Source of the DNA: Thermoplasmatota archaeon
GTDB lineage: Bacteria; Pseudomonadota; Gammaproteobacteria; Burkholderiales; Thiobacillaceae
Length of the DNA: 16,402 nt
Assembly: GCA_023475455.1 (NCBI GenBank)
Contig: JAMCVR010000210.1
Location: 1-16,402, forward strand
Reading direction: 5' to 3'
Shown piece after piece: positions 1 to 16,172 of this stretch (positions are counted from its first letter, which is position 1; each line of letters opens with the position of its first letter). Under the pieces are notes generated by a model, which was given only the letters and a program-made list of their open reading frames with translations, was not told where the DNA came from and ran no database searches. The position numbers and the translations under genes were made by a program.

Positions 1-127
1 AAAGATTATCGACAAAGAGGACACGGAGAACGCAGAGGAAAACGTATCGCCGGTTTTTCCCCGTGTCCTCCGCGCCCTCCCTGTAAAACGCTTTTGACCC
101 TGGATGACCCATGAACCTGGAAACGGC
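1..127. repeat. Copy 1 (right end) of a 628-bp tandem duplication
   Basis: These 127 bases are identical to 629-755. They are intergenic DNA that belongs downstream of the fusion-protein gene, yet here they run directly into the middle of that gene at 127/128. The unit 128-755 is therefore the second copy of a tandem duplication whose first copy lies mostly upstream of the window. Identity is perfect over the visible part. The left junction cannot be checked for microhomology because the original upstream sequence is not shown. Confidence 0.9.
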
Positions 128-129
128 TC

Positions 130-627
130 GAAGTCCCGGTTCCGGAAACCGCTCTGCCGCTGGTGCGCATCGGCCTGCCGGTCACGCTGACCGTCGACGC
201 CCTGCCCGGGCAACGCTTCAGCGGCAAGGTGCACGCCATCGATCCGGCGGTCGATCCGGTGAGCCGCAACGTGCGGGTGCGCGCGCGCATCGCCAACCCC
301 AAGGGGCAACTCAAGCCCGGCATGTTCGTCCGCGCCACCGCCGATCTGGGCGGCAAGACCCGCGCGATTCTGCTGCCCGAGCAGGCGATCGTGCCGCGTG
401 CGGATGGCAGCTACGTTTTCCTGGCGGTCGACGGCAAGGCCGAACTGCGCAAGGTCACGCTGGGCAAGCGCGAACCCGGCCGGGTCGAAATCGTCTCCGG
501 CGTGAAAGCGGGCGACACCGTCGTTCTCGACGGACAGATCAAGCTGCGCCCCGGCGTGCCGGTGGTCACGCTGGAGCAGGCGGCGCAGATGATGAAAAGG
601 CAGGCTGGCAAGCCTGCGGCGCGCTAG
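130..627 (+). CDS. 3' fragment of RND efflux membrane fusion protein (HlyD/AcrA family)
   Basis: This open frame carries the C-terminal part of a periplasmic adaptor that links an RND inner-membrane pump to an outer-membrane channel. Visible are the beta-barrel section (RIGLPVTLTVDALPG, then a DPAVDPVSRNVRVRA stretch), the typical LKPGMFV motif and the membrane-proximal domain ending in QIKLRPGVPV. Family members are usually 350-400 residues; only about 165 are here. The frame is coding right up to the duplication junction at 127/128 and has no start of its own (first possible start is GTG 163). It is therefore a duplicated 3' piece, and the full gene is expected just upstream of the window. 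It precedes the pump gene in the same direction, the usual adaptor-pump operon order. Which pump subfamily it serves cannot be told. Confidence 0.85.
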   Translation, partial: EVPVPETALPLVRIGLPVTLTVDALPGQRFSGKVHAIDPAVDPVSRNVRVRARIANPKGQLKPGMFVRATADLGGKTRAILLPEQAIVPRADGSYVFLAVDGKAELRKVTLGKREPGRVEIVSGVKAGDTVVLDGQIKLRPGVPVVTLEQAAQMMKRQAGKPAAR

Positions 628-628
628 G

Positions 629-755
629 AAAGATTATCGACAAAGAGGACACGGAGAACGCAGAGGAAAACGTATCGCCGGTTTTTCCCCGTGTCCTCCG
701 CGCCCTCCCTGTAAAACGCTTTTGACCCTGGATGACCCATGAACCTGGAAACGGC
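629..755. repeat. Copy 2 (right end) of the 628-bp tandem duplication
   Basis: Identical to 1-127. It starts at the stop region of the fusion-protein gene and ends in intergenic DNA at 755, where the two copies diverge (t at 128, a at 756). This copy sits in its natural context between adaptor and pump genes. Confidence 0.9.
640..731. repeat. Intergenic palindromic repeat element A
   Basis: An imperfect inverted repeat. The left arm (about 640-670) is purine-rich with GAGGACACGGAG and CGCAGAGGAAAA. The right arm (about 682-712) is the pyrimidine-rich complement with CCCCGTGTCCTCC. It resembles the CACAGAGACACAGAGG-type intergenic repeats seen in many proteobacterial genomes; that resemblance is from memory. 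It ends with a 22-base string (710-731) repeated exactly at the end of element B (845-866). A second instance lies at 1-127 because of the duplication. Confidence 0.65.
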
Positions 756-14922: not shown

Positions 14923-14952
14923 GTTTACCTGCCCCAAAAACCGGTGGGCGGA

Positions 14953-15594
14953 TTATCCCACTTCGGCCGAAAAGCGATAGCCCGAGCCGCGCACCGTCTG
15001 GATCAGATCCGCATGGCCGGACGGCTCCAGCGCCAGGCGCAGGCGGCGGATGTGGACGTCGATCGTGCGCTCCTCCACGAACACGTCGTCGCCCCACACC
15101 TGGTCGAGCAGTTGGGTGCGCGAATAGACGCGCTCGGGATGGGTCATGAAGAAGTGCAGCAGGCGGAACTCGGTCGGCCCCAGTTCCAGCGCCTGATTGC
15201 GGCTCTGCACGCGGTGGCTGGTGGGATCGAGCCGCAGGCCGTTGATTTCCACCGGCTCGTCGGTCATCTGCGGCGCGCGGCGGCGCAGCACGGCCTTGAT
15301 GCGCGACACCAGTTCGCGCGGCGAGAACGGCTTGGTGATGTAGTCGTCGGCACCGGTGTCCAGCCCCAGCACCTTGTCGCGCTCCTCGCCGCGCGCGGTC
15401 AGCATGATGATGGGAATCGGCTGGTAGCGCTCGTCGCTGCGCAGGCGCTTGCACAGGTCGATCCCGGACATGCCGGGCAACATCCAGTCGAGCAGGATGA
15501 CGTCGGGCAGGGTGCTCTTGAGAAATTTCAGCGCGTGCTCGGCATCGCCGGCGGCGGTGACCTGGTGGCCGGCCTGCGCCAGATTGAATTTCAG
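14953..15594 (-). CDS. phoB: Response regulator PhoB, 3' part of the broken gene
   Basis: This downstream piece in the direction of transcription carries residues from about 18 to 230. It has most of the receiver domain with phospho-acceptor Asp53 (ILLDWMLPG) and the TAR and ADDYITKPF motifs. The complete OmpR-type winged-helix domain includes the recognition and wing region TIDVHIRRLR and VRGSGYRFS, which the 5' part lacks. It has no proper start or N-terminal acidic pair. Removing one 527-bp period joins it in frame with the 5' part to give a standard 230-residue PhoB. The stop is at 14953-14955, 30 bases before phoR. Confidence 0.9.
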   Translation of the reverse strand: MKFNLAQAGHQVTAAGDAEHALKFLKSTLPDVILLDWMLPGMSGIDLCKRLRSDERYQPIPIIMLTARGEERDKVLGLDTGADDYITKPFSPRELVSRIKAVLRRRAPQMTDEPVEINGLRLDPTSHRVQSRNQALELGPTEFRLLHFFMTHPERVYSRTQLLDQVWGDDVFVEERTIDVHIRRLRLALEPSGHADLIQTVRGSGYRFSAEVG

Positions 15595-15595
15595 C
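15067..15595. repeat. Copy A of a 527-bp tandem duplication inside phoB
   Basis: These 529 bases are identical to 15594-16122. The copies overlap by two bases (GC), so the period is 527 bp, not a multiple of three. The segment codes for about residues 18-193 of PhoB. Confidence 0.95.
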
Positions 15596-16172
15596 GCTCC
15601 TCCACGAACACGTCGTCGCCCCACACCTGGTCGAGCAGTTGGGTGCGCGAATAGACGCGCTCGGGATGGGTCATGAAGAAGTGCAGCAGGCGGAACTCGG
15701 TCGGCCCCAGTTCCAGCGCCTGATTGCGGCTCTGCACGCGGTGGCTGGTGGGATCGAGCCGCAGGCCGTTGATTTCCACCGGCTCGTCGGTCATCTGCGG
15801 CGCGCGGCGGCGCAGCACGGCCTTGATGCGCGACACCAGTTCGCGCGGCGAGAACGGCTTGGTGATGTAGTCGTCGGCACCGGTGTCCAGCCCCAGCACC
15901 TTGTCGCGCTCCTCGCCGCGCGCGGTCAGCATGATGATGGGAATCGGCTGGTAGCGCTCGTCGCTGCGCAGGCGCTTGCACAGGTCGATCCCGGACATGC
16001 CGGGCAACATCCAGTCGAGCAGGATGACGTCGGGCAGGGTGCTCTTGAGAAATTTCAGCGCGTGCTCGGCATCGCCGGCGGCGGTGACCTGGTGGCCGGC
16101 CTGCGCCAGATTGAATTTCAGCAGTTCCTGGATTCCGGGTTCGTCTTCGACCAGCAAAATATTGGCAGCCAT
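15591..16172 (-). CDS. phoB: Phosphate regulon response regulator PhoB, 5' part of the broken gene
   Basis: PhoB is an OmpR-family transcription factor that, once phosphorylated by PhoR, binds Pho boxes. The start is ATG 16172 (MAANILLVEDEPGIQELL). The receiver shows the acidic pair Glu9-Asp10, phospho-acceptor Asp53, and the LTARGEERD and KPF switch residues. The winged-helix domain starts at about residue 130. The literal frame ends after VWGDDVFVEER (193 residues), where the duplication junction brings a TGA at 15591-15593. The missing 37 residues hold the DNA-recognition helix end and wing, so this form could be phosphorylated but should not bind DNA normally. An upstream in-frame start at 16205 is unlikely because it would cut into the spacer next to the Pho box. 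Confidence 0.9.
   Translation of the reverse strand: MAANILLVEDEPGIQELLKFNLAQAGHQVTAAGDAEHALKFLKSTLPDVILLDWMLPGMSGIDLCKRLRSDERYQPIPIIMLTARGEERDKVLGLDTGADDYITKPFSPRELVSRIKAVLRRRAPQMTDEPVEINGLRLDPTSHRVQSRNQALELGPTEFRLLHFFMTHPERVYSRTQLLDQVWGDDVFVEER
15594..16122. repeat. Copy B of the 527-bp tandem duplication inside phoB
   Basis: Exact copy of 15067-15595, lying on the promoter-proximal side. No mismatches between copies were seen. Confidence 0.95.

What the first reader, a model, noticed from the sequence alone, without database searches (positions are those of the whole stretch)
1..16122. Five exact, frame-breaking tandem duplications with 2-4 bp junction microhomology in 16 kb
Seen directly: periods 628 (1-755), 362 (3131-3858), 361 (6323-7046), 566 (10325-11459) and 527 bp (15067-16122), with no mismatches noticed. 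The four intragenic periods are all indivisible by three, and deleting one period restores normal-length proteins each time (1025, 354, 1271 and 230 residues). The four fully visible junctions share AGCT, GG, GCG and GC. With random joining about half of junctions would share no base, so four out of four with at least two hints at microhomology-driven joining. The likeliest cause is technical: unmerged contig overlaps, or amplification/template-switch chimeras with fragment-sized periods. A real mutational burst of microhomology-mediated duplications, reversible by recombination and so able to switch genes off and on, is possible but less likely because it would break nadA and phoB at once.
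Basis: partly seen in the sequence, partly recalled or inferred. Interest (0 to 1): 0.75.

Follow-up and report, generated by a model that had tools for sequence, protein, structure and literature searches.

The report
Artefactual tandem duplications in a contig
A piece of a Thiobacillus-like genome carries five perfect tandem duplications, four of them inside ordinary genes, that are most probably false copies made during DNA preparation and short-read assembly rather than real mutations.

Summary
Four complete exact tandem duplications (periods 362, 361, 566, 527) and one cut by the window start (period 628) are present; the four visible junctions share 4, 2, 3 and 2 bases. Background is far lower: a complete exact duplication of period 300 or more was seen in 0 of 80 genome loci (1.35 Mb), 0 of 245 IMG/VR loci (2.25 Mb) and 0 of 40 stretches of the nearest held genome (0.8 Mb). 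Shared bases exceed chance (0.0014 for four of four with two or more). At the four complete sites every testable relative is single-copy (3 of 3, 77 of 77, 7 of 7, 15 of 15). A new clue: the cut repeat is exactly 127 bases, which I recall as a SPAdes k-mer size; a NODE-named relative shows 127-base shared ends around 100 N. So the contig may start at a branch node that it crosses again, a graph loop. Best reading: head-to-tail chimeric molecules kept as loops and walked once too often. Reads are needed to exclude real duplications. Low interest.

The parts
1..755 (.). A: period 628; only the last 127 bases of copy 1 are in the window (1-127 = 629-755). Reaches over the C-terminal part of a HlyD-type membrane-fusion gene and the intergenic stretch behind it.
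   Evidence: exact match of 127; HlyD_D23 in 163-627; single repeated 127-mer
3131..3858 (.). B: complete exact tandem duplication, period 362, 4 shared bases, inside an RND (ACR_tran) transporter gene on the + strand
   Evidence: single copy in 3 of 3 testable relatives
6323..7046 (.). C: complete exact tandem duplication, period 361, 2 shared bases, inside nadA on the + strand
   Evidence: single copy in 77 of 77 testable relatives
10325..11459 (.). D: complete exact tandem duplication, period 566, 3 shared bases, inside a DUF3683/FAD-linked oxidase gene on the + strand
   Evidence: single copy in 7 of 7 testable relatives
15067..16122 (.). E: complete exact tandem duplication, period 527, 2 shared bases, inside phoB on the - strand
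   Evidence: single copy in 15 of 15 testable relatives

Best explanation
The duplications are technical. During amplification or library making some molecules were joined head to tail at 2-4 matching bases (small self-joined circles copied by rolling circle, or a polymerase end re-priming a few hundred bases back). Reads across these joins made short loops in the de Bruijn graph (X-U-Y plus an edge from the end of U to its start). The assembler walked each loop once too often, giving X-U-U-Y, and at the left end the contig began at such a branch node. Shown: exact copies, shared bases, single copies in relatives, the 127-base remnant, the low background. Inferred: that the window starts where its contig starts, the loops, the chimeric molecules and the chemistry behind them.
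For: Exact copies with 2-4 shared bases, above chance. 0 of 80, 0 of 245 and 0 of 40 control stretches with a complete exact duplication of period 300 or more. Single copy in every testable relative at B-E. The remnant of A is exactly 127 bases, and L098, a contig with a NODE name, has exactly 127-base copies on both sides of 100 N. No N in the window. Phi29 amplification is known to join strands at short complementary stretches: 76.8% at 2 bp or more (PMC1855051, passages).
Against: No reads, depth or assembly graph were available, so no junction read was seen. In phi29 chimeras 85% are inverted and direct joins under 10 kb were 11 of 475 (PMC1855051), while the window has five direct and no exact inverted repeat of 18 bases or more within 3 kb. 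The overlap peak reported for phi29 chimeras is 6 nt, most 5-8 (PMC4595205, measured on the reverse-strand class), longer than the 2-4 here. The spacing of the junctions is more even than random chimeras would give. That 127 is a SPAdes k is recalled, not shown by a call.
Confidence: 0.72

Rival explanations
1. Unmerged overlaps: neighbouring pieces of 3.2-4.7 kb that truly overlap by 361-628 bases were joined end to end through only 2-4 matching end bases by a merging, scaffolding or gap-closing step; no chimeric molecule existed.
For: Junctions at about 128, 3493, 6684, 10891 and 15594 are evenly spaced (CV 0.18; P 0.006 for exponential gaps, 0.018 for random placement; statistic chosen after seeing the data).
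Against: The first piece would have to end exactly 127 bases into the window (chance about 1 in 630 for that length); end-to-end joining would not by itself give 2 or more shared bases four times of four (0.0014).
Confidence: 0.17
2. Real duplications in the organism, fixed or in part of the population: short tandem duplications formed at 2-4 base microhomologies and reversible by recombination between the copies.
For: Exact copies and microhomology are also what recent real tandem duplications show. The same species was not found in another assembly, so a strain-specific event cannot be excluded.
Against: Five in 16.4 kb against none in the controls; single copies in every testable relative; an RND gene, nadA, an FAD-linked oxidase gene and phoB would all be disrupted at once.
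Confidence: 0.08
3. Small circles cut out of the chromosome in the cell, joined at microhomologies like the microDNA of eukaryotes (recalled), sequenced together with the chromosome and assembled as loops.
For: Direct joins only and units of 361-628 bases with 2-4 shared bases fit.
Against: About one per 3 kb is too dense for a cellular product; I recall no bacterial precedent and made no literature search for one; the same joins can arise in the tube.
Confidence: 0.03

Closest known systems
Chimeras of multiple displacement amplification with phi29 polymerase (PMC1855051, PMC4595205, PMC6515389; abstract and/or passages seen)
   Same: Joins of nearby stretches at short shared sequences (2-21 nt in PMC1855051); frequent (about one junction per 22 kb there)
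   Different: There inverted joins dominate and direct joins under 10 kb are rare (11 of 475); overlap peak 6 nt in PMC4595205. Here five direct, no inverted, 2-4 nt
k-length shared ends of neighbouring contigs in de Bruijn assemblies (here L098 11771-12124)
   Same: Exact 127-base copies
   Different: In L098 the copies flank 100 N; in the window the 127-base repeat is the first 127 bases and there is no N
Natural bacterial tandem duplications (recalled)
   Same: Head-to-tail exact copies, short junction homology possible
   Different: Not expected at one per 3 kb through unrelated genes; absent from the testable relatives

Membership tests
Phi29 amplification chimeras | Junctions at short complementary stretches | tested here: met
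   4, 2, 3 and 2 shared bases, above chance; shorter than the 6-nt peak of PMC4595205
Phi29 amplification chimeras | Inverted joins predominate | tested here: not met
   Five direct repeats; no exact inverted repeat of 18 bases or more within 3 kb. Assembly might hide inverted joins, so this lowers membership without settling it
Phi29 amplification chimeras | Sample was amplified with phi29 | not testable with these tools
   Sample and library unknown
De Bruijn graph loop artefact | Repeat of exactly k bases at a contig end | tested here: inconclusive
   127 bases at the window start; whether the window start is the contig start, and k itself, are not known
De Bruijn graph loop artefact | Junction depth below flank depth | not testable with these tools
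   No reads or graph held
Real tandem duplication | Seen in relatives at the same sites | tested here: not met
   Single copy in 3 of 3, 77 of 77, 7 of 7 and 15 of 15 testable loci; own species not found elsewhere, so a recent private event is not excluded
Real tandem duplication | Doubled read depth in the unit and junction reads at flank depth | not testable with these tools
   No reads held

The most novel reading that the evidence does not exclude
The DNA of this Thiobacillus-like population really contained many short head-to-tail duplications or small chromosomal circles joined at 2-4 bases, about one per 3 kb: a hypermutable or circle-producing state that switches genes off reversibly.
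Probability: 0.06. Interest if true: 0.75.

Novelty: not a real feature. Interest (0 to 1): 0.15.

Why it matters
As an artefact it matters to users of public contigs: genes such as nadA and phoB would be annotated as broken although the organism most likely has them intact. Exact tandem copies with a period of a few hundred bases, together with a repeat of k-mer length at a contig end, could serve as a cheap filter. If real, it would mean an extraordinary rate of microhomology-mediated duplication in a bacterium.

Tried and rejected
Rejected: chance repeats (exact copies of 363-569 bases; none of that kind in the controls). Rejected: a trait of the lineage (single copies in every testable relative at B-E; A could not be tested because its left edge is outside the window). 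Rejected as cause: an RNA element (0 Rfam matches at gathering score). Left weak: plain phi29 template switching (orientation and overlap length do not fit well). Frame breaking as evidence: dropped, because two of three random periods break the frame.

Searches looked only at repeats of at least 100 and 60 exact bases within 5 kb, and the G001 stretches are cut every 20 kb.

Literature: searches (0 papers; 5; 6; 28, 12 listed; 1; 0; 2; 4). I found no paper on tandem duplications of this kind as a metagenome assembly artefact in these searches, judging by titles and abstract beginnings; [quoted passage not shown] Opened: PMC1855051 (abstract and passages), PMC4595205 (abstract and passages), PMC4060946 (passages), PMC6515389 (passages), PMC6350398 (passages). 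The plasmid collection search gave distant matches in 4 records and was not pursued. The third protein search, five viral scans and the structure tools were not used.

Full report
What is there. A scan for exact direct repeats of 25 bases or more finds five and no others. Four are complete tandem duplications: 3131-3858 (period 362), 6323-7046 (361), 10325-11459 (566) and 15067-16122 (527), with 4, 2, 3 and 2 bases shared at the junction. The fifth has period 628; only the last 127 bases of its first copy lie in the window (1-127 = 629-755). There is no mismatch and no N, and no exact inverted repeat of 18 bases or more within 3 kb.

Host and genes. The window's own assembly is not held. The nearest held genome, G001, is syntenic at 83-92% identity over the aligned pieces. 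The best named relatives of the nadA piece in genome contigs are MAGs labelled Thiobacillus or Proteobacteria and Thiobacillus thioparus DSM 505, and several NadA and PhoB hits carry the name Thiobacillus. So 'Thiobacillus-like' is the placement; the species is not known. Pfam gives HlyD_D23, ACR_tran, Thioredoxin, NadA, DUF3683 with FAD_binding_4, FAD-oxidase_C with CCG, PhoR with HisKA and HATPase_c, and Response_reg with Trans_reg_C for the eight open frames scanned. These are ordinary genes.

More than chance. No complete exact tandem duplication with a period of 300 or more was found in 0 of 80 genome-contig loci (1,354,683 bases), 0 of 245 IMG/VR loci (2,251,237 bases) and 0 of 40 stretches of G001 (800,000 bases). 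Shorter or partial repeats did occur: in L024 an exact array of period 48; in G001 one complete pair of period 113 (L368) and partial ones in L353 and L358; a partial one in L123; partial ones of 62-80 bases in L024, L046, L070, L083, L093, L094 and L099, and of 127 in L098. At 124,582 random backward joins drawn in this window, 52.7% share no base and 19.3% share 2 or more; four of four with 2 or more has probability 0.0014, a sum of 11 or more 0.0036.

Relatives. Both copies fall on the same place in 3 of 3 testable loci for B, 77 of 77 for C, 7 of 7 for D and 15 of 15 for E. The other loci did not span the site; L021 and L389 are the same genome, and some named and unnamed loci may be the same species. 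Site A could not be tested; the alignment with G001 starts at window base 126, which would fit a shared GC at that junction (inference). G001 has open frames of 1028, 381, 1256 and 230 aa across the four sites. Of the 120 listed NadA hits 98 have 354 aa; one (P0003, on a 1105-base contig) has 262 aa, the length of my query, reason unknown. Of the 120 listed PhoB hits 113 have 229-231 aa (about 8000 candidates were scored in each search and only the best 120 were listed). The closest PhoB (P0121, 230 aa, listed without source) matches the window in two pieces, residues 1-193 at 97.9% and 18-230 at 97.2%, so an intact close relative exists. The window's own species was not found elsewhere, so a recent private event cannot be excluded this way.

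The 127-base clue. The visible remnant of A is exactly 127 bases. I recall 127 as a k-mer size of SPAdes runs; no call shows it. In L098, a contig with a NODE name, two exact 127-base copies stand directly on both sides of 100 N, as neighbouring edges that share one node would look when scaffolded. If the window starts where its contig starts (not known), the contig begins at a branch node that it passes again 628 bases later, which is a loop. A random cut would give this length with a chance of about 1 in 630, or under 1 in 100 if any common k were accepted.

Mechanism. Such a loop needs reads that run from the end of a unit to its start. The joins share 2-4 bases, so annealing probably took part. 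Phi29 amplification makes joins at short complementary stretches: 2 bp or more in 76.8%, about one chimera per 22 kb of product (PMC1855051). But 85% of those are inverted and direct joins under 10 kb were 11 of 475; inverted chimeras were also the dominant class in PMC6515389, and PMC4595205 reports an overlap peak of 6 nt for the reverse-strand class and 6.19% chimeric read pairs. So plain phi29 switching fits only in part. Self-joined fragments copied by rolling circle give direct joins of fragment size and fit better; or the assembler keeps direct loops and drops inverted joins (both inference). PMC4060946 added nothing decisive.

Against my reading. The junctions are more evenly spaced than chance (CV 0.18; P 0.006 and 0.018 under two nulls; four intervals, chosen after the fact). 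This favours pieces of 3.2-4.7 kb joined end to end without merging their true overlaps. That rival does not explain the 127 bases or the shared bases. Both are technical.

Verdict. Chimeric loops 0.72, unmerged overlaps 0.17, real duplications 0.08, cellular circles 0.03. Raw reads or the assembly graph would decide.

Noticed in passing
window 13440-13530 (upstream of the phoR frame 13570-14937 on the other strand's 3' side): A short dispersed repeat: 29 of the 51 listed G001 matches to the window fall on about 13444-13575, and 10 matches are in about 818 kb of G001. No Rfam match.
   Followed up: partly
window 27-118, 655-746, 790-881: An intergenic element of about 92 bases before the RND gene: two copies belong to duplication A, the third is 71% alike. 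G001 has one partial match at the same locus.
   Followed up: partly
L098 11771-11897 and 11998-12124: Exact 127-base repeat around 100 N in a NODE-named public MAG scaffold, apparently an unmerged k-length overlap at a scaffold join.
   Followed up: yes
window 8632-8831 against L021 8765-10889: G001 has about 2.1 kb where the window has about 0.2 kb, between two syntenic blocks.
   Followed up: no
P0003: A NadA relative of only 262 aa on a 1105-base contig, with the same length as the window's intact-frame piece; most listed relatives have 354 aa. A contig edge is a likely cause but was not checked.
   Followed up: no
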